Shown here one piece after another: positions 5,230-59,101 of a stretch of 64,000 bases of DNA. The position numbers were made by a program, and so were the translations under genes. Within the stretch, counting starts at the first letter, position 1, and every line of letters starts with the position of its first letter. The notes beneath the pieces were generated by a model. It did not search any database, had not been told where the DNA came from, and saw nothing but the letters and a program-made list of their open reading frames with translations. The DNA is from Pseudovirgaria hyperparasitica (Eukaryota > Ascomycota > Dothideomycetes > Acrospermales > Acrospermaceae), in NCBI RefSeq assembly GCF_010093815.1, contig NW_022985559.1, positions 523,770-587,769 on the forward strand, given 5' to 3'.

Positions 5230-5675
5230 GCGAGTTCGTATAATTTCCCCGCCTCTCTTCGTCACATTATTATTCCGCACTCATCACGGAACGAATATAA
5301 AAATCGGAGAAAAGATGAGCTTTCGCCAATATCGTCATCGTATACCCGTAGGATACAGCCAATCAGCAGAAGGCGACAAGACAAGGTAGCGTTCCATTGG
5401 GCATACGCCCCGCAACATGCACGTGCTCGTGCACGTGCATGCTTTGACCATGATCTCAATTATCGACATACGAGTTCGACTTTTCCAAAAGCATGCATCA
5501 ACTGTCATTGACGAAGCCTGCCACGATGGAGAATACTTTACAAAGTTCGTTCCATCGTCGTTGTTGCCTTGATTGACGCTGTATCTTCACAGTGGCGACC
5601 ACTCATTTTTCGAGTATTCTTAGTCGTTGAGTTCTTCGACATACCCACCTCATCCTGTCTAGATCCTCGTCCATA
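5230..5675 (+). promoter_or_regulatory. Promoter region of the sugar permease gene
   Basis: A 446-bp gap holds a CCAAT box (AGCCAATCAG, about 5355) and a pair of CACGTG motifs inside a near-palindrome (listed separately). No gene was seen. Confidence 0.5.
5420..5437. promoter_or_regulatory. Twin CACGTG (E-box) motifs
   Basis: CACGTG occurs at 5420-5425 and again at 5432-5437, inside an imperfect inverted repeat. CACGTG is bound by bHLH factors in fungi; which factor acts here, if any, is unknown. Confidence 0.4.
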
Positions 5676-15039: not shown

Positions 15040-16905
15040 CTATGATCCCTGGGCAGCGATTCTGATGACCTCATTTTCTACCATCTCGAAACCAGTCAAT
15101 GCATTTCCATATTGCTCAAAGACCCCTTCCGTGTAGCCATCCGCGACCCTTTTCACGAAATCCTCCTCTTTCCATCTCGCTTCTACGAAGTCCTCAAACG
15201 TCTCTCTTCCCTCCCTCCTGCATCCCCACACTGCCTTGTACGCACTGCCCAGAGCACATGCATTCCCCCCAATGTCCAACTTGAACACGCCTTCGGAGCC
15301 ACCAAGCACCTCGCCCGCGATTTTGGCGATCGCGTCATTGTTGCTGCCACCGCCGACGAGGTACACACGGCGCGGCTGCGCGGGAAGGAGCTTTCCCGTC
15401 TCGGTTCGTTGTGGGTGTACGAGATTGTGTGAGCGTAGACGTAAAGAGAGGAACTGTGATTCCACAATAGCGCGGGCGTCGGCTGTGGCGCTGGGCCATG
15501 AGTCTGTACCAGGTTCTACAGGTTTTAGGTCCTTGGATGTAGAGTTCCAAAGATAACGCCAAGAACCGGCTTTCACATTCGGGACAATTTCAGGGCGAGG
15601 GAAGAATAGACCAATGCGAGCGTTATCCTTCGAGGAATCCTTCTGGCCAAGAGCAGGGGTGCTGAGGAGTGTTCTGTTGAACGCGGCCCATATGTTAGCG
15701 TCTTCTGAGGATTCGAGGTCATTAATGGCATCGCGGACGTGCTCACGGGCGAGGCCGCCATTCTTATAACACAGCATGAACATATAGAGACCGGCTGTAG
15801 CTGGGTGGTTCATGAAGTGATATGAGGGATCTGGCTGGTACTGCGGGGTAGACATGAGGAAGGTAGTCGAGGTCCCCAGCGATACTATGGCATCAGAGGC
15901 CTGGAGAGGGAGAGCAAGAATGGTGGATGGGTTGTCGCCAGTGCAAACGATGACGGCGCAGTCTTTGCGGAAGCCAAATCGGTGAACAAAGTAAGGCGAG
16001 ATCGGTCCAAGCGTTTCGCCACCATCTTCAGGGACGGGGCCAAGCTTCTCCTTCAGTCCTTCCGACCCATCTTCACCAGCAACAAGAGCTAGGAGATCCT
16101 CCTGCCATCGGCCTTTGCTGACGTCCCACATGTTCATTCCGCCGACATCGCCAATGTCGATTGGCGCTATCTTTCCCATGAATATCGAAGCAATGAAAGA
16201 GGACACGAGGGATATGCGAGCAGTTTTCTTGTAGTGTTCAGGGTACTTGGTGCGGAAACGAAGAATTTGAGGTCCACTGAAGCGCTATCATGGATATCAG
16301 TAGTATGTTCGTTCCAGCCGTAGAACACTCACATGATGCGCCTTGCTACCAGTGACCATAGCCAGCCTTCCCGGGCTCCCTAGATGTAAATCGAATATCT
16401 CACATTGCTTCTGTGTGCTCGCATCTTGCCAATTTGGACTGTGTGGATGACTAAAAACACCGCCAGCCTCATTGCTATGCTCCGGACCCATCTGCTCCAC
16501 TAAAGTCTTCGCCGGATTTAGCGAGCTCATGATCTTCTCCGCATCTGTGCTCCAGAAAACAGTGCCATGCTGCATGCCAGCACCAGATATGCCTGCGATC
16601 CTCGAGAAGTCCAGTCCCTGCGCCTTTAGACGCTGAAGCACTAAGTCAAAGGCCTCAAGCCACATGTTATTCGGTGCGAATATCTCTCCCTCGGAGGGGT
16701 TGGTAAGAACGCCTTTAGTGATGCCATATTTTCTAAGGTCGGCATCGAAGTCGACTTTTGCTTCAAAGACGAGCTTGAGATCTGCCTTGACCACGATACC
16801 TGCATAGTTTGTCAGCGCTGTGCCCCAAGTTTGGGACCTTGTAAGCGCACCTTTGAGCTGTTGGGTACTCAGGTCGAATCCCAAGAATAGATCATTGTCA
16901 GCCAT
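15040..16905 (-). CDS. xkiA: D-xylulose kinase
   Basis: ATP-dependent phosphorylation of D-xylulose to xylulose 5-phosphate, the entry of pentoses into the pentose phosphate pathway; cytosolic, EC 2.7.1.17. Three exons (16851-16905, 16333-16799, 15040-16284) give 588 aa, close to the fungal norm of about 570-620. Seen: the FGGY-family start [14 protein letters not shown], split by a 51-bp in-frame intron, then [30 protein letters not shown] (about 95-106), the NWQDAST block, DVGGMNMWD with the likely catalytic Asp near 228, TGDNPST and [10 protein letters not shown], and [10 protein letters not shown] plus [11 protein letters not shown] near the C-terminus. Start at 16905 puts [11 protein letters not shown] at residue 6 as in homologues; an upstream in-frame ATG at 16938 is less likely. 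The frame is intact. Confidence 0.95.
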
Positions 16906-39448: not shown

Positions 39449-40979
39449 TTATTGCCTCTTGCTGATAGATTGGGGTGCACCATTGCTGTGTGGATGATTG
39501 TGGTCGTGGTCGTGATCGTGGTCGTGATCCGCTTGTAGCTCACGCGATCGCGGATCGAAGTTGATGAACTCGTCGAATACGTTTGGATCGGTATTATCTG
39601 CAACGAATCGGACACGTAGTCTCTTAACACCCTTGATCTTCTCGCCAATCCTTTCCCGCACTATTGTCTCGACTTCACGAGTCTTGGTGATGGTCCAGCT
39701 CTCTGGCACAGCTAATTCAATGTCCATCAGGTAGTTCTGGCCCGACTTGACACCCTCGACGTTCCGTACACCAACCGATGATTCTCCGATGCTCTCGAGT
39801 GCCTGAGTTGCCCGCCCCCGTACGTTGTTTACCATCTCCTCCTCTACGCCGACATCTGCAAGTTCAAGAAGTGCGGCTTTGGTATTTCCGTAACCTGCCT
39901 GTACAACCATGAGAGAGATTACAAGGCCGCCGACAGGGTCTAGCCAGGAGGCGTTTGTGAGAAAATTCGAACCCCCAATCATGAGAAGGGCCACGAATGC
40001 TGTGAGTGAGTCTACACGATGGTGGTATGCGTTGGAGGCAAGGACAGAGGATTTGCGCTCGTTGGCGACTTTGAGAGCTAGAAAAAAAAGTCAGCAGGGT
40101 CTCCTCGACTGGATGGTGATGATTTTGTTCCTCACTTGCTCGATACAGCCATTCTTTGATCACGATGGAGCCTGCCGCTAGCCATATTGCGTTTATATTG
40201 GGCCCCAATTCTTCCACTCCGTGATGGTGAGAGTGTCCGTGTCCCATGATTCCCAGATTCGATGCCAAGTCGGCAAAGTCTGGGAAGAATTGTTGGCAGA
40301 TTGCAGCCAGTGCGGCCCATCCCATCATCAATCCTCCTCCTACGAGTAGTCCACTGACACCAAGAGAACCTAAGCTCTCGAACTTGCCATATCCGCCCGG
40401 AAAGCGAGTCGATGGTGGTTTCAGCGACCAGGAGATGGTTGCCAGCGTCATGAAGTCGCTGATAAGATCCGTCAGGCTATGAATTGCATCTGCTAGTAGT
40501 GCTAGAAATATTATCAGCTCAAGAGGTCGTGGGAAAGCCTTGTGATGCCATAGTCACGTACCTTGGCTGTTGAAGAAATAACCCCCTACCCCCTTCCCGA
40601 TGGCCATGCCAAAGTTGACATACAGGCCAATTCTTGTGATTTTTACGCCAGCATCGTTCTTATTCTGTGACAGGAGATATGTATTATCGTGATGATGGTG
40701 ATGGTGCGAGTGGCCAACATGGTGCCTGATCTGCGTTATGGTACTGGTAGCCATGGCGGAAGTTGGACGAGGTCGGAGGGATGTCGAGTGAGGATTATGC
40801 AGGACAAGTGATTTATGTAAAGAAGGACGTAAGCAGAGTGCGTCAGGACCGGTGCGGAGTACACGAAACTGGTGGAACCGATATAGTGAAGGGGTAGATG
40901 AGGTGTGGTAGATTGTATGCAGTATTGTACTTGTCCTCCGAATTACGGGTGAGCCGCCATGGATGGGCGGCAACATCAA
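39449..40979 (-). CDS. Cation diffusion facilitator, Mmt1/2-like mitochondrial metal transporter
   Basis: CDF transporters export divalent metals (Zn, Fe, Mn) from the cytosol or an organelle. Three exons (40562-40979, 40136-40501, 39449-40077) with 60- and 58-bp introns give 470 aa. Seen: an Arg/Ser/His-rich N-terminus without acidic residues for about 40 residues (mitochondrial-presequence-like), a GHSHHHHHHDN metal-binding stretch (about 90), the membrane domain with DAIHSLTDLISD and NAYHHRVDSLTAF (the paired TM2/TM5 metal sites), YGKFESLG as in the Mmt group, and a GHGHSHHHG loop. A cytosolic C-terminal domain ends in an HDHDHDHDHNH repeat. The first in-frame ATG (40979) is chosen because it adds the presequence-like part; the alternative start at MATSTITQ would give a shorter protein. 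The gene ends about 275 bp from the retroelement block and is intact. Confidence 0.9.
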
Positions 40980-42216: not shown

Positions 42217-43173
42217 ATGTCAGCAGGCTTCTTCCCGAAAAGCGAGTCACTCGAAGTCAACGAACTGTGGAAAGGCCTCATCACAGCTTCTCATATATTG
42301 CACTATCACCGTGTCCTTGATGCTTACGGTCACATCTCAGTCCGCAATCCAGATAATGCAAACACATTTTACATGACCCGCAAAGTTGCTCCAGCACTCG
42401 CAAGTCGAGGCGAAGACATTGTAGAATACAAGGTAGAAGATGCAACACCTGTACAATCCAATGCGCCAGACGGTTTCATCGAGCGATACATCCACAGCGA
42501 AATATACAAGCGCTTCCCGTCGATGAACTGTGTTATCCACAGTCACTGTCGCGAAATCTTGCCGTACTGCATCAACGACATCCCCTTACAGGCAGTCATT
42601 CATCAAGCCGGATTTATAGGCAGCCGAGCCCCAGTATGGGATATCTCAAGCACATACTCGACGTTCTCATCCTCCGATCCGTATGACCTACTTGTCCGAA
42701 ACACCTCTATAGGCAGTTCTCTCGCCGCTGAGTTCAAGCCTTCCACGTCTGCTGGATTTATCTTCTCACAGATGAAATCCGCGCTGCCGAACATCGCCGG
42801 GAAGTCGTCGAACAACACTAGCGTTCCATCCTATGCAGTCGTTCTCATGCGTGGCCATGGTTTCACAACATGTGCTGAAGGCATTGAAGCTGCTGTGTAT
42901 CAAGCGATCTATACTAAGGAGAACGCCATCGTGCAGACTACGGCACTGAATATGAAGAACGCAGTCAGCGGAAGCACTATTGAAGGCAAAGTGGATGTTG
43001 AGGGCAGCGGAAAGATCAAGGATGGAAAGTTGAAGTCTGACAAGGGATTACGTGGACTGAGTGATAAAGAAATTGCAGATACAGTTAAGATGAATCAGGA
43101 GTCAATGATGAGGCCATGGGAGTTGTGGTGTCGAGAGGTCGAGGTGCAGCCTCTGTATATCAACGAATGTTAG
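42217..43173 (+). CDS. Class II aldolase / adducin-domain protein
   Basis: A single exon of 318 aa in the Aldolase_II fold (fuculose-phosphate aldolase / ribulose-phosphate epimerase / adducin head superfamily). Seen: an N-terminal helical part with HRVLDAYGHISVRNPD (about 30-45), the zinc-ligand pair in CVIHSHCREILPY (about 108-120), and a third ligand region in VLMRGHGFTTCAEGIEAAVY (about 210-229). The C-terminal 60 residues are charged and end in RPWELWCREVE. Start: the ATG at 42217 puts the domain at the usual distance; an upstream in-frame ATG at 42148 is possible. Catalytic members cleave or epimerise sugar phosphates using Zn. Many fungal homologues have unknown substrates, so the reaction is open. 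It stands alone between the CDF gene and a gene-poor gap. Confidence 0.88.
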   Translation: MSAGFFPKSESLEVNELWKGLITASHILHYHRVLDAYGHISVRNPDNANTFYMTRKVAPALASRGEDIVEYKVEDATPVQSNAPDGFIERYIHSEIYKRFPSMNCVIHSHCREILPYCINDIPLQAVIHQAGFIGSRAPVWDISSTYSTFSSSDPYDLLVRNTSIGSSLAAEFKPSTSAGFIFSQMKSALPNIAGKSSNNTSVPSYAVVLMRGHGFTTCAEGIEAAVYQAIYTKENAIVQTTALNMKNAVSGSTIEGKVDVEGSGKIKDGKLKSDKGLRGLSDKEIADTVKMNQESMMRPWELWCREVEVQPLYINEC

Positions 43174-45583: not shown

Positions 45584-47857
45584 TTAGAACATCTCATTAA
45601 CATCGAACGATCCTGTTAGACTCTCCAGATGCTCGAAACCTGGCATCCAAGCATCCACACCATCGTCATGATCAATCCAATTTGCCAATTCCATGACCAT
45701 CCTCAATGCCTCATCACTCCCTGTCCCGTGTTGTACAAACGCTTCACTAGCAGCCACGATACTGACATGAGCTGCTGCTGTTCCCATTGACCTCTGCGAT
45801 CCCGTAGCCATAGTGCTGGAAAAATTTGCGTCTGGACTCTGCTCGGTCTCCGCATCTCCACCAACCTTTTGCATCGTTGCATTGACTAGGATCTCGAAGG
45901 CATCGCGGTACTTGCGCACCCAATCCGCGCGCTCGCCCATGACGAAAAGGACCGAACTGCACGCGCGGATATCATTGCTGAGTGTAACAGACCAGACTTT
46001 GTGCGAGCTCGTCCATAGACAGTACAACATCGTGATTCCTGCCACAAATACCGTCTGCACGGCGATAAAGCTATGGCCATATTCGAAACTCTGGTGCAGT
46101 CGTTTGTGCGCTTGACAGATTTGGCCGGCTGCGCGAAGACAGGTCTGATAATATGGATCACCGACGGGAAGTAGCAGCAGGAAGGGCTGTAAGAGCAAAC
46201 GTAGAGCTTTGTGGTAGTGTAGCATGGGGTATTCAAGATCATCGTTGCAGAGTCGTGTGTGGGCACTGAGACGCCATTCCTCAAGATCAGCATACAGACG
46301 GTCGATCTTGGGGCGAAGGGAGCAGAGAGACCGATCGTTGCGGTAGATAGAGTTATAGATGCGTGATTCCACACGGCGGAGTTCGTAGAGGGTAATGGGG
46401 TAGGAGAGAGATGATAGGAGGGCCGGGGAGGTGGCGGTTTGGGAATGAGCAGACGGGAGTGGAAGGTCAATGTGACGGTCAGAGATGCTGCAAGGGCGAC
46501 CGAGGGATATTGATATTATACGTTCTAGTGAGTAAGTAGACCAGAAGAGGAGTCGGCGTCGTTGGATGCCTTCAGGAGAGTGGCTGATCTCTGACGTTGC
46601 TCGGTGCATGCCTAGATCAACGCAGGTGCGCATGGCAAGACCTGACATATACCAAAGACCTTGAGTAGAAGCAGATCGCAGATGATATATGATCAAGAGT
46701 AACATAGCCTCTACATTTTGAAGGCACCGGGGCTCTCGTGCTGCGGATATGTGTTGGAGGGCAGTCATGTAGAAACTCTGACAGAGCCACGTTAGAAATT
46801 TGGCTTCGTCATAATTTGGATAAGATCTCACCTCTGGAGGAGAGCTATCAGAGAGCCTCTCGGTCAGCTGCAAGAGCATGGCACCAATCGCATAGACCAT
46901 GTACATCTTGAATATCCCAAACCGTTCTGAGCTGCTTAGCATCTTGACATCAGTGGAAGATAGACGCGACCGATTTGCATGTAGCGTCCATATTGATCCT
47001 GGATCTAAGAAAGGATATCGTATGTGTAATCTTTGGAAGTATGCATGTATCAATTTAGTACCCAGTTGATCGTCTGGAGGAGCTGAGCTGTTGGCTTGTA
47101 TATCTTGCACCATGATCCTAGTTCGTTCTTGCGAATGGCTGGATAAGTATATCTTATCTACTATTGGCGTGCCTTGTTGAATATCATCGTCCCGAGGTGG
47201 TGGCATCGCTTTATTCCACACAGTCGCCTGAACCATTTGCCCAAGATTCAGAGCCAATGGAAGACCAGATGACGAGCCTACATAAGCAGGAGCTTCAAAG
47301 TTACCCATGTGCAGAGCATCGACAACATCTCTCAGGGCGTCTTCAATATGCGATGCATCATGTTGATCACTCCGTGGGCCTGCTATACTGTTCACCGCGA
47401 TTGGGTGTTCAATACCAACATTTTGGTGCGTTCTTGAGAGTTCGATCTCGAGAGCTGCAACACGTTCCTCTAAAGCATGTGTATATCTGCATGCTACGTG
47501 AGTCGTTTTGGTGATAGTAAGGAAGATTGCGGCTGACGCTGTCGGTAAAGGCTCACCAACGAGGCTCTTGTCACAGGCATTGCCGCTTTTCTCGCAATTT
47601 GAACACGTCGGCCATTGGCTATCACATTTTTGCTTCCGGTTCTTGCATCGTGTACATGCCGTTCTTGGTCGCTTCATTGGCTTATGTCCAAGTGGTGATG
47701 TTCGCAAGGGTGAGTTCTCATTCAATTGACTCATGATAGATGTTATGCAATCTGCAGATATGTATATTTGCTGTGGACGGCAATCAAGCGTTGATAGTGA
47801 TTTTGAACAGGGCATGTCACATTGTTCAGTCGTCCGGCTGCTCAGTGTATCGCTCAT
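45584..47857 (-). CDS. Zn2Cys6 transcription factor, candidate regulator of the adjacent accessory set
   Basis: Two exons (47557-47857 and 45584-47493). The whole span is open, but a 63-bp in-frame intron (47494-47556, GTGAGC donor, TAG acceptor) removes a foreign-looking insert between CDKSLV and ACRYTHALEERVAALE. Product 736 aa, or 695 aa from the ATG at 47734, which lies nearer the zinc cluster as usual. Seen: a C-x2-C-x6-C-x6-C-x2-C-x6-C cluster (about 68-95), a coiled-coil dimerisation helix, and a fungal-specific transcription factor domain with WSTYSLERIISISLGRP (about 400-420). It lies beside the P450, hydrolase, amidase and permease genes on the same side of the gap, so it is the obvious local regulator. 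CGG-N4-CCG sites in that set fit this class of protein (inference). Confidence 0.88.
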   Translation of the reverse strand: MSDTLSSRTTEQCDMPCSKSLSTLDCRPQQIYISADCITSIMSQLNENSPLRTSPLGHKPMKRPRTACTRCKNRKQKCDSQWPTCSNCEKSGNACDKSLVGEPLPTASAAIFLTITKTTHVACRYTHALEERVAALEIELSRTHQNVGIEHPIAVNSIAGPRSDQHDASHIEDALRDVVDALHMGNFEAPAYVGSSSGLPLALNLGQMVQATVWNKAMPPPRDDDIQQGTPIVDKIYLSSHSQERTRIMVQDIQANSSAPPDDQLGTKLIHAYFQRLHIRYPFLDPGSIWTLHANRSRLSSTDVKMLSSSERFGIFKMYMVYAIGAMLLQLTERLSDSSPPEVRSYPNYDEAKFLTWLCQSFYMTALQHISAAREPRCLQNVEAMLLLIIYHLRSASTQGLWYMSGLAMRTCVDLGMHRATSEISHSPEGIQRRRLLFWSTYSLERIISISLGRPCSISDRHIDLPLPSAHSQTATSPALLSSLSYPITLYELRRVESRIYNSIYRNDRSLCSLRPKIDRLYADLEEWRLSAHTRLCNDDLEYPMLHYHKALRLLLQPFLLLLPVGDPYYQTCLRAAGQICQAHKRLHQSFEYGHSFIAVQTVFVAGITMLYCLWTSSHKVWSVTLSNDIRACSSVLFVMGERADWVRKYRDAFEILVNATMQKVGGDAETEQSPDANFSSTMATGSQRSMGTAAAHVSIVAASEAFVQHGTGSDEALRMVMELANWIDHDDGVDAWMPGFEHLESLTGSFDVNEMF

Positions 47858-48148
47858 ACAGGGATTAGGATAACAAGGACATGTGGCGTAAGCTGCGGGG
47901 GACCTAGCACAATCTTCGTGACTCGTGTCATCACTTGTGAGTAATATGACAGAGTTTGCGTGAATCTTCCCATCATCTATAGATGCCAGGTCAGAAGAGT
48001 TGGATGAAGCTCAGATGTTTGACAAGATGACAAGAGCTATCGGTCTTAAGCAGATCCGTGAACACTTTAGCTGGTCTAATATGCATATTCTCTGCATGTA
48101 ATGAGTATGCTTCCTGCTCCGACTGCGAAGATAATGAATGCATTGCAG

Positions 48149-50024
48149 CTACCTAGCCACGCACATAAGACGTACGGCGTCAGCGTTCTTCATCCTCAAT
48201 AGCATCTCCATGTCCACATCGTTGATGGTTCTTCTGAGTCTCTTCAGGGTGTCCAATGCAATCTCGCCATCAGCGGCTCTGGGCTCGAGTCTGTGGTCTC
48301 GGAAGAGATGTGCCATCACTGCAACAAATTCGACTTCGGCAAACTTCTTACCAGGGCAGTCCTGTGGTCCATCAGACCAGGGGAAAAATGTGTTCCTTGC
48401 TGGTGTGTGAAACTTTTGACCTTCCGTAGAAGCCTCTATCCAACGCGAGGGTTTCCATAGTAATGGATCAGACCAGCTGCTGGAATTAGTGTGGCAAGCT
48501 AAAAGACTCATGGTAGTTGTTGTATGTGGAGGTATAATTATGTGTTTCCCGCGGACATTGAGGGACTGTGATCTATCATCAGTACCCTTAGGTAGTGCCA
48601 TAATAGGCGGATATAACCGTAGCGTCTCGTACTATTGAGATATTTAGTTTTAGATATTCAAGAGATTCACAAGTCAAGACATACGAGTATTGCTTTGCAT
48701 CGTAGAAGCTGTGGGAAAAACTTCTTATAGCTCCCGAGTTCAATTGTCGAAGTAGTGAAGACTTCTCTGATCTCTTCCCATATCCAGTCTTGTACTTCGG
48801 GCTGGGTAGCTAGTAGTAACATTGCGAAGGCGAGTGTGTTTGCCGTTGTATCGTGCCCAGCGAAATTAATGACAAAGATATTACCAAATATTTCATCAAC
48901 TGAGAGTCCTCTCGGGAGTCTCCCAGCTGGGTCTTCAGCTCGATCATTGTTACTTTGATTTGCATGATGCGCATGTATAAGCGATGTCATGAGCCCACCC
49001 GAACCGGACTTATTAAGCTCGTGTGCTCTCAATTCTTCGTGAAGCATCTCATTCATGTACTTCTTGAATAGACTGCCTGCCTGGCCAATGCGAGCCAATC
49101 TCCTAGGCATCAAAGGAAACATTAACACCTGGTAAGGTAGAAGCATAAGTAATATGACGTTGTCCAAAATAGTCTGTAAAGCGTCTCTATATGTTCCTGT
49201 TCCGACAACGGAATCGTCCGCTGAGCCGATGAACCTATAAGTCTTACGAAAGCCAGTCGCGGCAAGTATATTCAGCGATAGCGATCGAGTGTCCCGTTGA
49301 ATGCTGGGAATACCTGTCCGCTCAGTGCTTGGTCTTGTCCAGGACTTCAACATGCCCTGAGATTGACGCAGAGATTCGTCCCATACGAAGCTCATAATAC
49401 TCTCATTAAAGGGTGCGGCAAGGGCTTTCCTGTGGCGAGGCCAGTTTTCTACATCTGCTGTCGATATGCAAGGGCCGAAGACTTCTAATATCTCTGTTGA
49501 ACGTCAGCAAAAGTTATGAAACGTTACTACAGTGCCAAAACACAATTCTGACCCGAACCAAGTACAGGAGACTCCTCGAGGTACCACTAGACTCATGTCT
49601 TGTTACAGTATGTGGAGATAATTCTATGCTTACTGTAGCCTTCAATCGGTCTTACGAAGTCGCGCCGGTGAGCAAAAATGTGACCAATAGCCTCTGGATC
49701 TGATATATGAACATCGATTCTGACTGGAGACACCAGTGCCCAGATCGGACCCAATCTATCGTGATCTGAAGATTTCTCGTGAAAGTGCCATCCTCGACGA
49801 AGGTGTCGAATCGATGCTGGGTACGATGTCCAGTCGAACGGCAAGCTGTCCAAAACTGACCAGATGAGGTGTCCGAAAACCTGCCAGAGTATATTGTGGG
49901 AATCTATAGGTAGTCGAACGCAGGGAATGCCCATCCTGGACGCCACGCGCATGTTTATCTCGAGACATGCCAGCGTCCATGAGCCGTACGCGATCAGCAA
50001 ACCAAGGACGACTTGGAAGAACAT
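48149..50024 (-). CDS. Cytochrome P450 monooxygenase
   Basis: Haem-thiolate monooxygenase, probably ER-anchored by the N-terminal hydrophobic helix (FFQVVLGLLIAYGSWTLA). Three exons (49634-50024, 48685-49493, 48149-48631) with introns of 140 and 53 bp give 560 aa. Seen: I-helix AGHDTT (about 342-347), ExxR in ETLRLYPP (402-405), and the haem loop PWSDGPQDCPGKKFAEVEF with Cys492. Two haem-loop positions differ from the common FxxGxRxC pattern: Trp where Phe is usual and Gln where Arg is usual. PWSxG-type loops with Trp do occur in some fungal families. The first intron is longer than the others but has good ends. It lies about 340 bp from the hydrolase gene. The substrate is unknown. Confidence 0.92.
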
Positions 50025-50366
50025 GTCCGTGTGCTACCAACGTCGAGCGACCTCTATAAGTTTACTTAGAGGTGTAACACCGAAGATAGATGTCTTGTAG
50101 GGCCCTGGGATACTCCTTATGTAAAAGCTCGCATTAGAACTTAGGTCTGTTGGTTGCGAGATCAGACGCGCTGAAACATTTGAGTATTAATTAAGTTTGG
50201 CCCCGAACCAACACAGACCTAGGGGATGTGTCGTCTCACCACTAGTCTTAACCCGCTCTAGCGTAAATCCCACTCTGCTTAAGAGCGTTAAATTACCTCT
50301 TACTTAGACTACAACTACTGTCTGTTATCTACATCGATGTGGCTTGTTTTATGCGTGACCCCCTGA
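50025..50366 (-). promoter_or_regulatory. P450 upstream region
   Basis: About 340 bp between the P450 start and the stop of the hydrolase gene, both on the minus strand. It contains two HGATAR-type GATA motifs (near 50094 and 50326). No CGG-N4-CCG pair seen. Confidence 0.4.
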
Positions 50367-51526
50367 TCATTCTTTGCTCATCCAGGCCCCATGCGGCTTG
50401 TATGGGAACTCTTCATGCATGTGTCTCGCAATCTGCTCTCGTGTTGTCACCCAGACATCTTCTTTCTCCGAAATATACATCATGAAGTTTCGCAAAGCCT
50501 CGCAGCGCCCGGGCTTGCCAGTAATCCTGGTATGTAGGGGAATGGTCATCATCTTTCCAGAGCTCGCACCCTCACGGTAGAGCATGTCAAACGTATTCTT
50601 CAGATATTTCTCGTAAGTCTCGGCAACAGAGCTACCGAATCCAGGTGCCATGTGGAACTTCCCATCGTTGCAATCATAGTTGTATGGTACGAGGAGCATT
50701 CCCTGTCTTTGATCCTCTGGCAATTCAGCTTCCCAAGGGAGGTCAATCCAGTATGGTACGTCATCCTGTCATGTTGGTCACATGGCATTCAGCTACGGAC
50801 ATCGCGTCTAATGACTTACGTTGTATACTTCTGAAGAGTAAAGAAACTCAGCATCTAGTTCTTTCCAGACTTCTGGAAACAACGACGGGGTGTTGGGTGT
50901 ACCACGTCCAAAGTACGCACCCGTGGGCATCCTACCTGTACCCAGTCAGCAGATGGCGGTAGGATCTCACGGAAGTAGTAGTTTACCGGTCACCTCTTTC
51001 AGTGTCGTGAGCGTCTTCTTGATGTACTCTTTATCTTCCTCGAGACCATAATCCCATATATCGAGCCATCGATAACCGTGGGCGCAGATCTCGTGACCAT
51101 CTCGAACAAGTGCCTGCGCAAACTTTGGGTTCTTTTGCAAGGCTAAAGCTACCGCAAAAGTGGTGAAATTCCAACCAAACTCCTTGAACAGACGGATAAA
51201 ACGCCATGAAGCTGTGCGCGATCCATATTCAAAGTCCTGCTCCGCATTTAGATATCTGGCATTCTTGCGGAAGCCTCCCGATGAGCCTTTCTCCCAAAGA
51301 TATGGCTCTGATATTTCATCACCATCTAGCACGGATCTTTCACCTCCCTCTTCATAGTTCAGGACGAATGATACCGCGATCCTAGCACCGTTCGGCCATT
51401 TTGGATCAAAACTGTCCTCTCCGAAACCTAGGTCAAGTTAGCAATAGTAGTCAAAGCAAGCGGAATTGATAGGAACGGACCTTCAAAGTTTCTCGGTATC
51501 TGCAGCTTCTTCTCTATGTGAACCAT
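50367..51526 (-). CDS. Polysaccharide-deacetylase-fold hydrolase, PuuE / cyclic imide hydrolase-like
   Basis: Four exons (51481-51526, 50987-51427, 50820-50935, 50367-50765) with 53-, 51- and 54-bp introns give 333 aa. Seen: PNGARIAVSFVLNYEEGGE (about 27-45), SRTASWRFIRLFKEFGWNFT (about 85-104), DGHEICAHGYRW (125-136) with the metal-binding His pair of the fold, and GAYFGRGTPNTPSLFPE (about 168-184). This layout matches metal-dependent amidohydrolases of the PuuE allantoinase / cyclic imide hydrolase group, not chitin deacetylases, and there is no signal peptide, so it is intracellular. It is divergently paired with an amidase. In Aspergillus nidulans the nicotinate pathway uses a cyclic imide hydrolase followed by an amidase (hxnM, hxnN), so a ring-opening role is the best inference. 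The substrate is not proven. Confidence 0.85.
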
Positions 51527-51708
51527 ATTAATACTTCCAAGAATGGAGAATTCCAGTAAGCTTCGATCGCTACTTTGATTGCTAAGCTTTATAGAGAGGC
51601 AGTCAATAGCGACCCCTCCTAGTGGATATGGTGATACACATCCATGTGAGATCTTTATTCGTCGCGATCTAACCCCGTTACGAGACAAAACATGACTCGC
51701 AAACCCGC

Positions 51709-51720
51709 TCGGACGTCCGA
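51709..51720. promoter_or_regulatory. Perfect palindrome with CGG-N4-CCG, candidate Zn2Cys6 operator
   Basis: tcggacgtccga is its own reverse complement and holds an inverted CGG pair with a 4-bp spacer. A close relative, CGGAC-N2-CCGA, lies at 56320-56330 upstream of the NCS1 permease. Confidence 0.55.
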
Positions 51721-51772
51721 TCTATAAAGTGGAGAACTATCTCAATAAGCAAGGAACCCGACAAGGGCATCC

Positions 51773-51791
51773 GATAAGAACCAATCTTATC
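51773..51791. promoter_or_regulatory. Inverted GATAAG pair flanking a CCAAT box
   Basis: GATAAG (51773-51778) and CTTATC (51786-51791) form an inverted pair with CCAAT (51781-51785) between them. Both halves fit the AreA/NIT2 consensus HGATAR, and paired GATA sites are the stronger targets known for these factors. Confidence 0.55.
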
Positions 51792-51986
51792 AGACCCTTA
51801 CCACAGACTGTAAATGCGGCAGGCCTTGACACATGATAATATACCGCATTAGTCTTCTGAGTCGTTAAGTTGTCGCTGCTACGCGATGCACTATATGACA
51901 CCATGTTATGAGTAGGAGTAATAAAGATTTCTTGATAAGACGTGTTCGTCCATTTGAAATCAGACGGTACTAACGATAGTTCAGCC

Positions 51987-53739
51987 ATGTCGGTCTTTTC
52001 GCTAGAGGTGAAAGAATCTAATCCCGTCACGTCGCAGACTGTGGATGAGCTCTGCTCCCTATGGGGCGTCGCAATCAACGATGAAGAGAAAAAAGACTAT
52101 GAGACACTCTTGGCCGTATTCCATGACTCTGCGGATGCTATGATGAAATTACCAGGTAATTGGATGTACATGACTCCTTTGCGTACCTCTTTCTTACAGA
52201 GTGCAGAGTATAGCCCTACTGTTGATCTAGATCGCTTCCCACGCCAACATGTTCGGTTGCCGAATCCTGAGAAGAATACATTAGGAGCGTGGGCCTGGAA
52301 ATGTGAGATCATAGACCAGAGAGGGCCAAATGGAGATCTTTCTGGTAAATCTGTCGCCCTGAAAGACAACATTGCTGTCAAAAATGTTCCGATGTTGATG
52401 GGGACAGATATGGTCAAGGGTTACGTGCCAGTAAGATAATCTCAGACCAGGTATTATCATATATTAACAAGTCCATAGGCCATAGATGCGACAGTTGTCA
52501 CAAGAATCCTCGAGGCTGGTGGTAGGATAACTGGCAAGGCTGTCTGCGAGAATTTATGTCACTCTGCAACTAGTTCATCAGCGGCCACTGGGCCCGTTCA
52601 TAATCCATATGCGAAAGGATATAGCAGTGGAGGGAGCTCAAGTGGAAGTGGTGCCCTTGTTGCTAACCATGATGTTGACCTAGCTCTTGGAGCTGATCAA
52701 GGTGGCTCTGTCCGCGTGGTGAGTCCTGTTTCTCCCCTGAGCGCTTGTTTGAAGGCTAACAATGCAGCCTGCCGGGTGGTGTGGCATATATGGTCTCAAG
52801 CCAACCTTTGGTCTAATTCCATACACTGGTTGCGGCAGTAACGAGCCTACAAACGACCATCTGGGGCCCATGTCACGCACAGTGCTCGACAATGCCTTAC
52901 TCCTCCAAGCTATTGCCGGAAATGACAACATAGATGACCGCTCCTTTGCAACACCCTCACCCTCCCGGATCCCGAGATACCACACCAGATTACTCGAAAT
53001 TCCTAATCCCACTGATCTAGCTGGTGTTCGCATCGGTGTGCTCAGCGAAGCATTCACCCAGCCCGCTCTCGACTCACGTGTGGTCGAGTGCGTCCGTTCC
53101 GCCATCGCCGAGTTCATACGTCTCGGTGCCATAGTCGAGGACGTGAGCATTCCAATGCATACTCACGGTGCATCAATCTGGACCGCTGTCAGCAAAGTAG
53201 GCGGGTACCTCGCCAAACAAAATCTTGCATTCGGCCGCCGTGGTCATGCCATGAACGATCTTGCAAATCTATTTACACCGCTTACACAATCCTCGTGGGA
53301 CGCTGCATATGTCAGTACAAAGAATATCTATCTTAACGGCGCGTATGCTGTCAAACACTTTCCTAGTCTCCTGGGCCATGCGACAAATCTTTCACGCCAA
53401 CTGCGAGATGCATATGACGTAGCGTTGGAAAATTATGATGTTCTAGTCCTGCCAAATCTACCGTATATAGCGACGAGTAATTTTGATAAAGAGGATAAGC
53501 CGTTGGAGAAAATTAGGAAGCAGGTGGGCTTGACCGGTAACACGGCATCGTTCAATCAAAGTGGACACCCGGTGCTGGCAATGCCGATTGGGATGCTGGA
53601 GATTCAGGAGGGCCCGTTGAAAGGGAGTGGAGTGAAGTTACCTGTGAGTATGCAAGTTGTAGGGAAGTGGTGGGGTGAGGAGCGTGTATACAAGGTAGCA
53701 TATGCGTGGGAGAAGGCATGCAACTGGAAGAGTAGGTAA
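51987..53739 (+). CDS. Amidase (amidase signature family)
   Basis: Hydrolyses a carboxamide to acid plus ammonia. Three exons (51987-52430, 52479-52718, 52768-53739) with 48- and 49-bp introns give 551 aa. Seen: the catalytic Lys in [10 protein letters not shown] (Lys126), the GGSSSGSG loop (199-206) with the cis-Ser, and the nucleophile Ser225 in [15 protein letters not shown]. The C-terminal [11 protein letters not shown] and [16 protein letters not shown] blocks are typical of the family. No signal peptide or membrane segment, so cytosolic. It is divergently transcribed from the ring-opening-type hydrolase gene across a GATA-rich spacer, which suggests the two act in sequence. Homologous fungal amidases act on acetamide, nicotinate breakdown products and others, so the substrate is open. 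Confidence 0.93.
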
Positions 53740-54163
53740 GGGTATTTTTGTAGACAGATAGAGTATGTATTTATACAGTGCTACATAGGCCATGACCCTC
53801 GTTTTAAAGCTCTTCTATCTGCTGTAATATACAGAGAATAGAATTTATGCTCTATAGCTAGCAAATCGTGTTTCAGCGTTCGTGTAACCTAGTGTGATAA
53901 TCTCTGCTGCCACCCTTTCTAACAGTAGAGAGAGTGTAGTGAGAAAGTGAAATGTCTGGTGCTGAAATAACCTTCACCTGATATGTTGGTTTTGACACAC
54001 TGTGCACCTCACTTGCGCTTCTCTTCTCCTGTGCTTTGTCTTCAGTAGTATAATCATAGGCTTTCAAAAACAAAGTGTAAGCTTCTCTAAATGATTTGAA
54101 CAATTGAAACGGTCATTTACTCAGTCGTTCGGTAGCGGTACTTATAGATACAGATATTAAATC
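53740..54163. other. Convergent 3' intergenic region
   Basis: About 420 bp between the amidase stop and the stop of the convergent permease gene. No feature seen apart from presumed 3' untranslated sequence. Confidence 0.5.
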
Positions 54164-56061
54164 TCAAACTATACCCTTCTTCTGTTCTCCTCTCACAATC
54201 TCACTCATGGTATCGTCATCCGTAGTACTAGCGATACCCACTACTCCCATACTATTTTTGATGCTGTCGACACTCTCACCACTAAAGAATCCCTCTGTGG
54301 CTGCCATATACTCGAAGGTCTTCTCAGCATTTCCAGCTTGTGATGCCGGGTACACAGGCGTAGGCCAGATTAGCGAGAGGCAGTAGAATATTACTGCACC
54401 CATTGCAAAGCTAAGGAAGAAGCCCAGTTTATACATATTTTTACTCGACTGGTTCACGGAGTCTGGATCAAGGCTCCCAGCAATGCCATGCACAGTGAAC
54501 GCGACGCCGGCAATCCAAGCGGCAATTGCGCGTAGGTTCCATCCATGGGTATATTCGTATGGTGTTCCCGACTTCTTCTCGTATAGAGATGGAACGTGGA
54601 AATTGCCGTTTCGAAGCACCCAGTAGTCAACGATCATAATCCCCACAATAGGCATCAGGAAGACGGTATACGAACCAAGGAAGACTAGGAACGAGGACGC
54701 ACTCGAAATGATTTTCCAGGGGACACACAATGGAGCAAGAAGTGCACATACGACCTGACCGCGGACGATGTTGACGTAACGTGGAAAGAGGCCAGAGGTG
54801 TCTGCTCCAACAGGGAGTGAGTTTGATCCGGCATTTGTTGCTAGTATCGCGAGGACCATGCTCTATGCAAGTTGTTAATATAAACAGTGGAGGATGTAAT
54901 TGTTGGGAAACGCACTAAAGCTACGAAGAAGATGCCAGCACGAGCTGTGGAGTTCCAGTATTGGTCTAGGATTGCGCCATACGCATCCCACACGTTCCAG
55001 TAGCTCTTTCCAAGCACCCCTGTGGTAGCAGAGGTCGTGGCACACGAAATGAACATGACGAGCACTTTGCTGATGAGAATTCCGAACGCCTGGCTCCATG
55101 TTGCTTGGCTTGGGCGGGCTGCGTACCTAGCTACATCGGGCTGGTTAACTAGGATTGGACAAAGTGCTCCACATACAGAGTTGATAGCTTGAATCATAGG
55201 CCAGACCAGTGCAGATCCTGTGAGAACTTTTTGGTCTGTAAACGCGAAGCCACCGATAGTTCCCCCGTTCTTGGAAACTGCCCAGCCTAGCATGCCGAGA
55301 AGGGCTGTGGTGGTGTATACGGCTTTGACGACGAAGAGATGGCGAAGCACCGTGGGATGCAAGAACATGACGGGCAGTTGAATCAACCAGAAGATGAAGA
55401 ATGCTAAGAGATTGCCAGACGTAATTCCTGCAGACACCGGAAGGTGGTTCGGAATTCCGGTCCAGTGATGGCCAAAGATTGCCCGTAGGCAGACAGACAT
55501 TAACATGCCACCATAAAAACTTTGCGTCGCAAAGTAGATGACAGCAACGCTGGCACGGACTCCAATGAACAGCCTCGCGCCGCCAAGGCCACTAGATGCT
55601 CTGACGTAGACAGGGAAGCCAATATGATATCTACTAGCTCCACGGGAGTTTAATATCACGATGATGGAAAGGAATACTGAGCCGATGACAGCTGCAATGA
55701 TCCCATGCCACCATTGCTAGAAATAAATCAGCTGACTAGGAAAATGTATTAATTAGACTGCATGTGAACCTACCAAGCCCGTGGCGATCAAAGTGGCTCC
55801 AAGGTTGTATGACCCTGGTGAGAATGTCTGGGTTAAGTAGTACGTGAAGAAATGTACCATATTCCATTTTCTGTGCTCTAGCAACTGAAGATTAGTTAAG
55901 TATGTCAAGAAGACTACGGTAATCGTACCTAATCGCGTCGGAAGTAGGTCTTCATTGAAGTATGCCTTTCCTTTAGCAGGAGCTTCTTTGGTTCTCACTA
56001 ATCGTTTGAAATCGTCAATGGACGAGAAAAGATTCTTGACAGACGTCAAGCCAAGCATCAT
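54164..56061 (-). CDS. NCS1-family nucleobase/hydantoin/allantoin-type permease
   Basis: Plasma-membrane proton symporter of the nucleobase:cation symporter 1 family, which imports uracil, allantoin, hydantoins, cytosine/purines, thiamine or nicotinamide riboside. Four exons (55929-56061, 55774-55877, 54916-55716, 54164-54862) with 51-, 57- and 53-bp introns give 578 aa, the usual length. Seen: NEDLLPT before TM1, TQTFSPGSYNLGATLIATGL in TM1, NSRGASRYHIGFPVYVRASS (TM2-loop), SVCGALCPILVNQPDVARYA (about TM6), NAGSNSLPVGAD (TM8), and IVDYWVLRNGN followed by a Y-E-K loop in the C-terminal half. The start is the ATG at 56061, as no ATG lies upstream in frame. It lies beside the amidase and hydrolase genes, so import of their nitrogenous substrate is a reasonable inference. 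Which NCS1 subgroup (Fur or Fcy) is not certain; the motifs look Fur-type. Confidence 0.92.
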
Positions 56062-56319
56062 GCTAACTCGAAGTATCAAATCGGGCTGTGATGGTGCCTG
56101 ATGATCTGCAAGGATTCAGACTATCCTAAATGTAGGTTTCGACTCTGCCAAGGTACGACGCAGCTACCTGTGTGTGATCTGCGTGGGGTCGCCGATGGGT
56201 CAAACAACGTGTGTTTAAGTCACCGCTACCACGTCAAAGCGAATGTACATACGCATGATATACGCAGTCTTCCCATGATTGAAATATTCAGACAGACACT
56301 AGAGTCATTCGGCAGGTGG

Positions 56320-56330
56320 CGGACCACCGA
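56320..56330. promoter_or_regulatory. CGGAC-N2-CCGA site, candidate shared Zn2Cys6 operator
   Basis: cggaccaccga lies about 260 bp upstream of the NCS1 start codon and matches the 51710-51720 site (cggacgtccga) at all but the two central bases. Confidence 0.5.
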
Positions 56331-56489
56331 CAATGTTTCGGAGTATCGATGGGCGAAATGACATGGGTTATCTTGGGATATCATGGTTCCTGTCATGATG
56401 GGAGAAACCCGCGTCGAAGGTGGGATATTAAAGTGGAGATGTGCTATCATGTACGCATGTATGAATAGTGCAAGGGGTTGTTTTCTTAT

Positions 56490-56747
56490 CTATGGATGAT
56501 CACAAAATCTCTCATTTTCCTGGCGTCTTGGAAGTCCCCACCTGTCTCGGTTGCTCCGTGCAGTGCGATCTGTGCACTCTTCCGAAAAACCTCCGCGCCG
56601 GGCCGGCTGCCGGGATGCGAAGATATGCACGAACTCGTTCCCTTCATCCACAATACACTTGATTTGCCCATCATCAAACCACCCCTTCGCCGTAGACGGA
56701 CCGCCAAAACGTCTCGGAAGCTTGTTCATCCATCGTGAACTCAACAT
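56490..56747 (-). CDS. Uncertain small ORF (85 aa)
   Basis: A frame of 85 codons from the ATG at 56747, with protein-like middle part (RFGGPSTAKGWFDDGQIKC, IVDEGNEFVHIFASRQPARR) but a low-complexity, Arg-rich end. The frame is open upstream to about 56795 without an ATG. No family recognised and no clear introns. It may be a remnant exon or a chance frame in the divergent promoter. Confidence 0.25.
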   Translation of the reverse strand: MLSSRWMNKLPRRFGGPSTAKGWFDDGQIKCIVDEGNEFVHIFASRQPARRGGFSEECTDRTARSNRDRWGLPRRQENERFCDHP

Positions 56748-57260
56748 GGTGCCTCTTGCTAACGTTGCCAAGATGTCCGCCTTGCGCAAGTCCACATTAG
56801 CTAGTGGGCGTGTTTGGTTGTTGTCGGCCTCAGCATCTCAGCACGTGTTTTTCATCATCCTTAATTACGACACGCTGTGGATGCTAAGGCCTTCCGCAGT
56901 CTTGGGACGGTGATTGCAAACCATAATATTCACCGAAGCTAAACTCTGGGCAAATGACGCTGTTTCATGCCCTTGTTCTGTACATTCCATATCATCTATA
57001 TATGTGCTTTCCCGTTCGTTATGGACATGCCGAAGCTCTCAAAGCCCACAGTGGTGGTACCATACTCAATATCAAGACGATCACTACAGCATAGATCTCT
57101 CACTGTGCACTGCATAGACTTTTCCAGTTTCTAGTCCTAGTAAGACAGCAGCTTTATCATTAGCCTGCATGCAGTGCTAATATATTCAAAGTAACACCTT
57201 GGTGGCAACTCAGAAAGCCACTCCTCGATATTCAGCCTATTTCGGTTCTCTCCCTTCACC

Positions 57261-59101
57261 ATGGGTGGAATGATGAGAGAGAATGCCGCACAGATGCGTG
57301 CAGAGCGCGCCCTGACCGACCAAATGAAGATCCTCCCCAAGAGTCAACTATACGCCGTGACATCCATACTTTCCATTGCAATGTTGGCCACATACATGGA
57401 TCAAAACGGTGTCAGTGTTACTGTCCCAATCATTGGCACCTCCCTGGGGGCCGAAGATACCATATCCTGGGCAGGTACGAGCAGTCTAGTAGCCAACACC
57501 GTATTCAGTGCGCTCTACGGACGGATGAGTGACATATGGGGCCGCAAAAGAGTTTTCATATCCGCGCTCGTGGTGCTATCATTTGCGGATGTTATGTGCG
57601 GCTTGTCACAGAATGGACCAATGCTCTACTTCTTCCGTGGCGTCGCCGGTGCAGCTGGTGGCGGCGTGACGAACCTGACAATGATGATCCTCTCTGACGT
57701 TTGCACCCTTGAGCAACGTGGGACATTCCAAGGCATTATAGGCAGCATGGTAGGCATTGGGAACGTCATCGGTCCATTCATCGCCGCTGCGTTCCTCAGC
57801 ACAAATGTGAATAAAGAAGAAAGCCGTCTAGGCGTCGGCTGGAGAGCATACTTCTACTTCCTAGCACCATTGGTGGCTGCAGCTGCAGTTGTGTCTGGGA
57901 TATTACTTCCGAATCTACAGAAGGAGAATAAGAAACTGGATCACAAGTCCTGTGAGAAGAAAGTCTTGACTGCGTGGGAGAATGTCCAGATGTTCGACTG
58001 GGGCGGTCTTGTTCTTAGCGCTGCGTCGATAATACTTATCCTGATCCCCATATCCGGTGGTGGCGCATATTTTCCGTGGAATGGCCCGGTCGTCATATCC
58101 TTCCTCGTCATCGGAAGTGTCCTTCTCGTCGCACTCATCCTATATGAATGGAAGGTCGCAAGATTGCCTATGATACCTGGTACATCCCCTTTATGCTCCA
58201 ACACTCTCACACATGACAAAAACTGACCAATCTTGTAGTAACCCTCTTCAGCAATACCGCCATAGCAGTAGTGCTCGCCCAATGCTTCCTCATTGGCTTC
58301 GTCTACCAGACATATATATATTACCTACCTTTATACTTCCAAAACGTGCGCCAATTCTCGCCTATCGTCTCTGCGGCCTTGATCTGCCCGATCGTCGTCA
58401 TGCAAGCCACGTTTTCTGTGGCCACGGGCCGATACATCTCTTATCGCAAGCGCTATGGTGAAGTTATCATTGTTGGCTTCATTCTCTTCACTCTTGGTGC
58501 AGGACTGACAGTTCTGTTTGATGTGGATACATCACCTGTGGCGATAGTCTTCACCCTGGGCTGCGTCGGCATCGGCGTGGGATGTGTGTTCCAGCCGACG
58601 CTGATTGCGCTGCAAGCTCATAGCCCAAAACCAAATCGAGCAGTTGCAGTATCAATGAGGAATTTCTTCCGATGCCTGGGCGGAGCGATCGGGCTGGCTG
58701 CTTCTGCGGCTGTGCTGCAGGCGACGCTACGCAAGAATCTCCCAGAGGAGTTCAGCAGTTATGCAGACCATACATACAGTCTCAGCGGCGCCGGGAAAGA
58801 GGTTAGTCCGGAGAATTTTGCGAGGATCAGACATGGCTATATGCTCTCGAGCCGCGCAGTGTTCATTGTACAGGTCCCGCTTATGTTCCTTTGTTTGCTG
58901 GGCTGCTGGTTTGTCAAAGATAGAGGATTGGAGAGGCCAGATGAGCGCGAAGAGAGGGAGAGAAGGGAGAGATCACAGCAGACAATGGTTATGGAAGACA
59001 CGGATATTGAGAAGGCTGTTCGGCAGCTTGATAGTGAGATGACAAGTGATGATGAAATGGTTGACAGTGGTAAGAGCAGCGAGGAACAAGTCCGATCATA
59101 G
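57261..59101 (+). CDS. MFS transporter, DHA2 (14-TM drug:H+ antiporter) type
   Basis: Two exons (57261-58179, 58239-59101) joined over a 59-bp intron give 593 aa. Seen: a soluble N-tail of about 30 residues, TM1 with AMLATYMDQNGVSVTVPII (the DHA2 D1 motif, Asp46), motif A GRMSDIWGRKR (87-97), motif C-like GIGNVIGPFIAAA, the 14-TM layout with a central RLPMIP loop, and an acidic, Glu/Arg-rich cytosolic C-tail of about 75 residues. Members export drugs, toxins, amino acids or siderophores, usually at the plasma membrane or vacuole. It is divergent from the NCS1 permease and the last gene of the accessory set, so it may export a pathway intermediate or a toxic substrate (inference). Confidence 0.92.

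What the first reader, a model, noticed from the sequence alone, without database searches (positions are those of the whole stretch)
45584..59101. Candidate nitrogen-heterocycle or cyclic-imide catabolic gene cluster
Six adjacent genes form a coherent pathway kit: NCS1-type importer, P450 oxidase, PuuE/cyclic-imide-hydrolase-like ring opener, amidase, DHA2 exporter and a Zn2Cys6 regulator. Ring opening followed by amide hydrolysis is the chemistry known for nicotinate breakdown in Aspergillus (hxnM, hxnN), but here it is paired with a P450, an NCS1 permease and a Zn2Cys6 regulator in place of the usual hxn partners. I know of no described cluster with this exact set. Substrate candidates are hydantoins, glutarimides, pyrimidine products or a plant or xenobiotic cyclic imide.
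Basis: partly seen in the sequence, partly recalled or inferred. Interest (0 to 1): 0.78.

Follow-up and report, generated by a model that had tools for sequence, protein, structure and literature searches.

The report
Fungal cluster for ring-opening nitrogen scavenging
A fungus that lives on other fungi carries a group of neighbouring genes that looks built to import a small nitrogen-containing ring molecule, open it and strip off its nitrogen; parts of the set also sit together in other fungi, but what it feeds on is unknown.

Summary
The six genes are real and at the stated coordinates (Pseudovirgaria hyperparasitica, a Dothideomycete). The hydrolase is not HxnM-like: it is a PuuE (allantoinase)-type enzyme without the metal site, in a fungal clade that differs from bacterial PuuE at fixed positions. 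The amidase keeps its Lys-cisSer-Ser residues. Hydrolase and amidase lie on the same contig in seven other fungi. Two mis-joined public gene models show the hydrolase beside the same kind of regulator (Talaromyces) and of DHA2 transporter (Didymella); in A. nidulans the hydrolase AN3354 is two locus numbers from an NCS1 gene, AN3352. The P450 is the odd one out: none of 119 listed homologues shares a contig with listed hydrolase or amidase hits, and Talaromyces joins hydrolase to regulator without it. A second, divergent NCS1 + PuuE-like + (decayed) amidase group lies on another contig of this genome. Best reading: an uncharacterised nitrogen-scavenging cluster that hydrolyses a small cyclic imide or ureide in two steps, the P450 being a lineage-specific addition. 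The substrate is untested; an intact canonical allantoinase and an allantoicase elsewhere in the genome argue against allantoin.

The parts
45584..47734 (-). Zn2Cys6 regulator, 695 aa, exons 47557-47734 and 45584-47493
   Evidence: Zn_clus + Fungal_trans; next best match in its own genome 48 bits, 28%; 44% identical over 222 aa to the part joined to the hydrolase in Talaromyces P0002
48149..50024 (-). Cytochrome P450, 560 aa, 3 exons; probably a lineage-specific addition
   Evidence: p450 144 bits, identical to public P0241; linkage not seen elsewhere
50367..51526 (-). PuuE-type ring hydrolase, 333 aa, 4 exons; public name 'putative chitin deacetylase'
51527..51986 (.). Shared divergent promoter of hydrolase and amidase; 6 HGATAR sites and one CGGACGTCCG palindrome
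   Evidence: Markov mean 2.5, P 0.037, uncorrected
51987..53739 (+). Amidase-signature enzyme, 534 aa, exons 51987-52155, 52207-52430, 52479-52718, 52768-53739; K109, S184, S208 in place
54164..56061 (-). NCS1 (Fur-type) permease, 578 aa, 4 exons
   Evidence: TIGR00800 314.7 bits, below its 353.1 cut-off; Mhp1 hydantoin transporter is the only relative found among solved structures, 49 bits
57261..59101 (+). DHA2-type MFS transporter, 593 aa, 2 exons
   Evidence: MFS_1 170.5 bits; EmrB-type 146.4 bits, below cut-off; 48.5% over 202 aa to the MFS joined to the hydrolase in Didymella P0051

Best explanation
A dedicated nitrogen-scavenging cluster. The NCS1 permease imports a small, flat N-heterocycle (inferred). 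The PuuE-type hydrolase opens a -CO-NH- bond of the ring without a metal (family chemistry; inferred here), and the amidase then cuts the exposed amide or ureido group to give ammonia and an acid (inferred). The Zn2Cys6 protein switches the genes on, and the DHA2 transporter exports excess substrate or a toxic intermediate (inferred). The most likely substrate class is a five- or six-membered cyclic imide or hydantoin-like ureide other than allantoin. The P450 joined later in this lineage and is not needed for the core steps.
For: Shown: same contig for hydrolase and amidase in 7 other fungi, with consecutive locus tags M1834_001735/001734 in Cirrosporium; hydrolase joined to an orthologue-like regulator in a Talaromyces model and to a DHA2 MFS in a Didymella model; AN3354 hydrolase and AN3352 NCS1 (passage) in A. 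nidulans; a second NCS1 + PuuE-like + amidase-like group on contig C3 whose PuuE-like and NCS1 genes are the closest matches to the cluster's own in this genome; amidase catalytic residues intact; in both trees the Pseudovirgaria protein groups away from the main Dothideomycete set, as expected if the two travelled together; six GATA sites in the shared promoter.
Against: No substrate, expression or knockout data. Same contig is not adjacency: the seven contigs run from 0.27 to 2.2 Mb, and only the Cirrosporium tags show neighbours. NCS1 linkage elsewhere rests on locus numbers (homology of AN3352 to this NCS1 was not tested) and on the C3 copy; regulator and MFS linkage rest on one fused model each. 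The C3 amidase is a remnant with stops, so that group may not work as a pair here. The 80 bacterial hydrolase loci hold no amidase match and an NCS1 match in only one. The GATA enrichment is weak: 11 of 1177 windows of that size at 40-64 kb and 31 of 825 at 0-16.5 kb also reach six.
Confidence: 0.6

Rival explanations
1. The hydrolase is simply a fungal PuuE allantoinase, and the cluster is an alternative allantoin route fed by an allantoin permease.
For: Best PDB sequence and fold matches are PuuE types; the 16 aligned fungal proteins keep the PuuE letters in the former metal site; Fur-type NCS1 proteins can carry allantoin (PMC8306328, passage).
Against: The genome has a canonical-type allantoinase in two adjacent open pieces of 209 and 334 aa (C4; 180 and 253 bits to TIGR03178, neither alone over the 357.85 cut-off) and an allantoicase (C19). 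TIGR03212 score 305.5 is under its 424.6 cut-off. All 26 rows of the cluster clade have Pro at 277, two residues before His279, and Glu at 198, where all 80 bacterial rows have Gly and Asp; the C3 paralogue has Gly and Asp. Allantoate is not a known substrate of amidase-signature enzymes (recalled).
Confidence: 0.15
2. A detoxification cluster: the DHA2 exporter and P450 meet a plant-derived or microbial cyclic imide or lactam, and hydrolase plus amidase destroy it; nitrogen gain is secondary.
For: DHA2 transporter beside the hydrolase here and in Didymella; P450 in this species; both trees suggest transfer or patchy loss, a pattern also known for xenobiotic clusters (recalled).
Against: An NCS1 importer in the set argues for uptake as food; the P450 is not seen with the set elsewhere; GATA sites hint weakly at nitrogen control.
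Confidence: 0.2
3. An hxn-type (nicotinate) pathway segment: HxnM-like ring opener and HxnN-like amidase.
For: Same order of chemistry, imide hydrolase then amidase (PMC9304392, sections 12 and 13 read).
Against: HxnM is 64.2% identical to a P. putida cyclic imide hydrolase homologue and structurally nearest to 3qbu; this hydrolase scores 33 bits to 3qbu against 265 to PuuE. No oxidative hxn-type enzyme other than the unrelated P450 lies among the six genes.
Confidence: 0.03
4. The hydrolase is a chitin deacetylase, as the public record says.
For: Pfam Polysacc_deac_1, 50 bits.
Against: The former metal triad reads Glu-His-Trp (Asp-His-His in true chitin deacetylases is recalled); other authors flag such fungal proteins as PuuE/allantoinase-like (passages).
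Confidence: 0.02

Closest known systems
PuuE allantoinase (Pseudomonas; PDB 3cl6, TIGR03212)
   Different: Below the family cut-off; 34 alignment positions differ at 85% or more on both sides, 6 of them gaps; neighbours are amidase and NCS1; a canonical-type allantoinase is present elsewhere
A. nidulans hxn regulon, HxnM + HxnN (PMC9304392)
   Same: Hydrolytic ring opening followed by amide hydrolysis that frees nitrogen, in a regulated fungal gene set
   Different: Different hydrolase subfamily; NCS1 importer and Zn2Cys6 regulator; no oxidative hxn-type steps among the six genes
Rhodococcus sp. N-771 amidase (PDB 3a1k; strain name recalled) / PRK07235
   Same: 317 bits over residues 85-544 of my first model; Lys-cisSer-Ser residues kept
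   Different: 495.9 of 545 bits for PRK07235; bacterial relatives on plasmids are 39-41% identical in the 30 rows listed, so substrate cannot be carried over
Fungal NCS1 Fur transporters and the Mhp1 hydantoin transporter
   Same: NCS1 family; Gln121 and Asn318 of Mhp1 (recalled as ligand contacts) align to Gln144 and Asn360
   Different: Trp117 of Mhp1 is Tyr140; only 49 bits to Mhp1; the Fur subgroup was not resolved

Membership tests
PuuE allantoinase | TIGR03212 score at or above cut-off | tested here: not met
   305.5 of 424.6 bits
PuuE allantoinase | Former NodB metal triad replaced (NYEE, H...W) | tested here: met
   Invariant in 16 of 16 aligned fungal proteins; same letters in the three bacterial rows printed
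PuuE allantoinase | Allantoinase activity | not testable with these tools
   No assay
HxnM / cyclic imide hydrolase (HpPgdA-like) | Nearest to 3qbu among solved structures | tested here: not met
Amidase-signature family | Lys-cisSer-Ser residues | tested here: met
   K109, S184, S208 aligned with 3a1k (3a1k numbering of the triad recalled)
HxnN orthologue | Falls with HxnN in a tree | not tested
   HxnN sequence not at hand
NCS1 transporters | TIGR00800 cut-off | tested here: not met
   314.7 of 353.1 bits. The full-length match and Mhp1 homology still place it in the NCS1 superfamily (inference)
CE4 chitin deacetylase | Asp-His-His metal triad | tested here: not met
   Glu-His-Trp
Conserved gene cluster | Hydrolase and amidase linked in other species | tested here: met
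   7 shared contig lengths besides this genome's, among 120 and 120 listed hits; distance on the contig not seen
Conserved gene cluster | P450 linked to hydrolase or amidase in other species | tested here: not met
   0 of 119 listed non-self P450 hits share a contig length; 595 hits passed the threshold but only 120 were listed, and only the longest contig per protein cluster is visible
Conserved gene cluster | NCS1, MFS and regulator linked in other species | tested here: inconclusive
   One indication each (with 28; 27; 40); no database search was left for these three

The most novel reading that the evidence does not exclude
A widespread but undescribed fungal pathway in which a metal-free, PuuE-derived imide/ureide hydrolase and an amidase-signature enzyme, fed by their own NCS1 importer and run by their own Zn2Cys6 regulator, use a natural cyclic imide or hydantoin as nitrogen source; two diverged versions arose with different substrates, the second with an old-yellow-enzyme-type reductase and an aldehyde dehydrogenase beside it.
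Probability: 0.45. Interest if true: 0.62.

Novelty: new variant of a known kind. Interest (0 to 1): 0.5.

Why it matters
Fungal proteins now labelled 'chitin deacetylase' would be re-read as small-molecule ring hydrolases, and a linked pair in A. nidulans (AN3352, AN3354) would give a genetic model in which to find the substrate. It would also add a second fungal solution, beside hxn, for taking nitrogen out of N-rings by hydrolysis.

Tried and rejected
HxnM/nicotinate reading: disfavoured on sequence and structure scores. Chitin deacetylase reading: rejected on the metal site. Plasmid records: amidase relatives 39-41% and hydrolase relatives 39-46% identical in the 30 rows listed each; their neighbourhoods were not read. 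Metagenome amidases at 65% identity looked like a possible bacterial source but read as N-terminally shorter fungal-type proteins (by eye). A shared regulator motif: CGG-N4-CCG occurs once in each of the two divergent promoters, but also five times elsewhere in the window, so it is not claimed. Class II aldolase at 42217-43173: the only copy found in the genome, no evidence that it belongs. Whole cluster DNA against plasmid records by megablast: no match, as expected for fungal DNA. Paper searches showed no description of this gene set in their listings (20 of 1,434 shown, 20 of 34; two searches returned no paper); the library holds open-licence papers only. The structure comparison did not separate the three PuuE-type chains (Z within 1). 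Loops of low confidence (16-18, 42-73, 75-79, 232-247) were not interpreted. Whether HxnM exists elsewhere in the genome was not settled: of the Polysacc_deac loci, C2 and C7 read by eye as deacetylases with the DD motif, C3 is PuuE-like, and the C4 locus was not examined.
Full report
What is there. The window is contig C11:523770-587769 of a 35.0-Mb genome. Its hydrolase is identical to a public protein of Pseudovirgaria hyperparasitica on a contig of the same length, 1554694; this is a Dothideomycete of the Acrospermales. Between 45584 and 59101 lie six genes: Zn2Cys6 regulator (-), P450 (-), PuuE-type hydrolase (-), amidase (+), NCS1 permease (-), DHA2-type MFS (+). Hydrolase and amidase are divergent over 460 bp; permease and MFS over 1.2 kb.

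The amidase. The nearest solved relative is the amidase 3a1k (317 bits). The position that is Ser in 3a1k and Ala in its variant 3a1i is Ser208 here; Lys109 and Ser184 are also kept.

Linkage. The protein searches list the longest contig of each hit, and the 120 lengths are distinct within each list. Hydrolase and amidase lists share 8 lengths: this genome's and those of Stachybotrys elegans, Mytilinidion resinicola, Clohesyomyces aquaticus, Massarina eburnea, Aspergillus spinulosporus, Colletotrichum orbiculare and Cirrosporium novae-zelandiae. The contigs are 0.27 to 2.2 Mb long, so this shows linkage, not adjacency; only Cirrosporium has consecutive locus tags. Of 10 species that I picked by eye as named in both lists, 7 share the contig; in A. 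falconensis, Aureobasidium pullulans and Friedmanniomyces endolithicus it differs, which may be strain or assembly. In Mytilinidion and Massarina the second-clade hydrolase lies on another contig than the amidase, a useful contrast. Two public gene models are mis-joined neighbours: Talaromyces P0002 is the hydrolase followed by a regulator 44% identical to ours over 222 aa, and Didymella P0051 is the hydrolase followed by a DHA2 MFS 48.5% identical over 202 aa (only these two of 360 proteins match two of our genes). The regulator's next best match in its own genome is 48 bits at 28%, so the Talaromyces match looks orthologous. In A. nidulans the hydrolase is AN3354, and AN3352 is listed as NCS1 in PMC5371717 (one passage); its homology to this NCS1 was not tested.

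The P450. Its best relative is 55-56% identical, and none of 119 listed non-self hits (of 595 over threshold) shares a contig length with a listed hydrolase or amidase hit. For 11 species picked by eye from both kinds of list the contigs differ in all 11; in three of these (Mollisia, A. ambiguus, Pestalotiopsis) only a second-clade hydrolase was there to compare. In Talaromyces hydrolase and regulator are joined in the order and strand seen here, with no P450 between, though a gene hidden in a mis-predicted intron cannot be excluded. I read the P450 as a late addition.

Second group. On C3 the genome's other PuuE-like gene (2257698-2258789) lies beside an amidase-like stretch (2259560-2260024, the best amidase match outside the cluster, 49% over that stretch) and the closest NCS1 paralogue (2261416-2262984, 42%). 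The amidase stretch has two in-frame stops and no C-terminal part in the alignment, so it is a remnant. An aldehyde dehydrogenase and an FMN oxidoreductase (old-yellow-enzyme family) lie on either side. No regulator or MFS like those of the cluster was matched there. A rough chance for one of the 3 other NCS1 loci to lie within 5 kb of a given gene is 0.0009.

History. In both trees the Pseudovirgaria protein groups with Eurotiomycete and Sordariomycete proteins and not with the main Dothideomycete set (classes of the rows recalled, not looked up). In the hydrolase tree this is a set of 11 rows at 99 that also holds Neophaeotheca, another Dothideomycete; in the amidase tree the 20 Dothideomycete rows form one side at 99 and Pseudovirgaria's own placement has 94. 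This fits joint transfer or joint loss elsewhere; I cannot tell which.

Function. A canonical-type allantoinase lies on C4 in two adjacent open pieces of 209 and 334 aa (180 and 253 bits to TIGR03178; neither alone reaches the 357.85 cut-off), and an allantoicase on C19, so the cluster does not seem needed for allantoin. Importer, ring hydrolase, amidase and regulator fit nitrogen scavenging from a cyclic imide or ureide. The shared promoter has 6 GATA sites against a Markov mean of 2.5 (P 0.037 before correction for the six regions looked at); 11 of 1177 windows of that size at 40-64 kb and 31 of 825 at 0-16.5 kb also reach six, so this is a hint only. Every catalytic step here is inferred from family chemistry; none was measured.

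Limits. The three protein searches went to hydrolase, amidase and P450; NCS1, MFS and regulator were not searched in the large database.

Noticed in passing
G000 contig C3:2255800-2265400 (L113, L114): A second NCS1 + PuuE-like + amidase-like group with an aldehyde dehydrogenase and an old-yellow-enzyme-type gene beside it; the amidase is a remnant with stops.
   Followed up: partly
window 18000-39000: AT-rich block (GC 25-36% in 2-kb steps), RIP-like by eye, ending about 3 kb before the aldolase gene and 6 kb before the cluster.
   Followed up: no
window 42217-43173 (+): Intronless class II aldolase/adducin gene, the only copy found in the genome; weak match to 3,4-dihydroxyphthalate decarboxylase (40.8 of 200 bits).
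   Followed up: partly
window 15040-16284 (-), 5631-7286 (+), 3577-4746 (+): FGGY sugar kinase-like frame, sugar transporter and a Fungal_trans regulator, possibly a sugar-use neighbourhood.
   Followed up: no
window 39449-40090 (-): Cation efflux (zinc transporter-like) frame with a His/Asp-rich stretch near its end.
   Followed up: no
L007 (C40:6041-9194): Holds the only 5.8S rRNA match listed; the small-subunit sequence at its start looks unusually AT-rich by eye.
   Followed up: no
P0001, P0004, P0015, P0046, P0104: Fungal PuuE-type proteins named chitin deacetylase in public records although the metal site is replaced in the alignment.
   Followed up: partly
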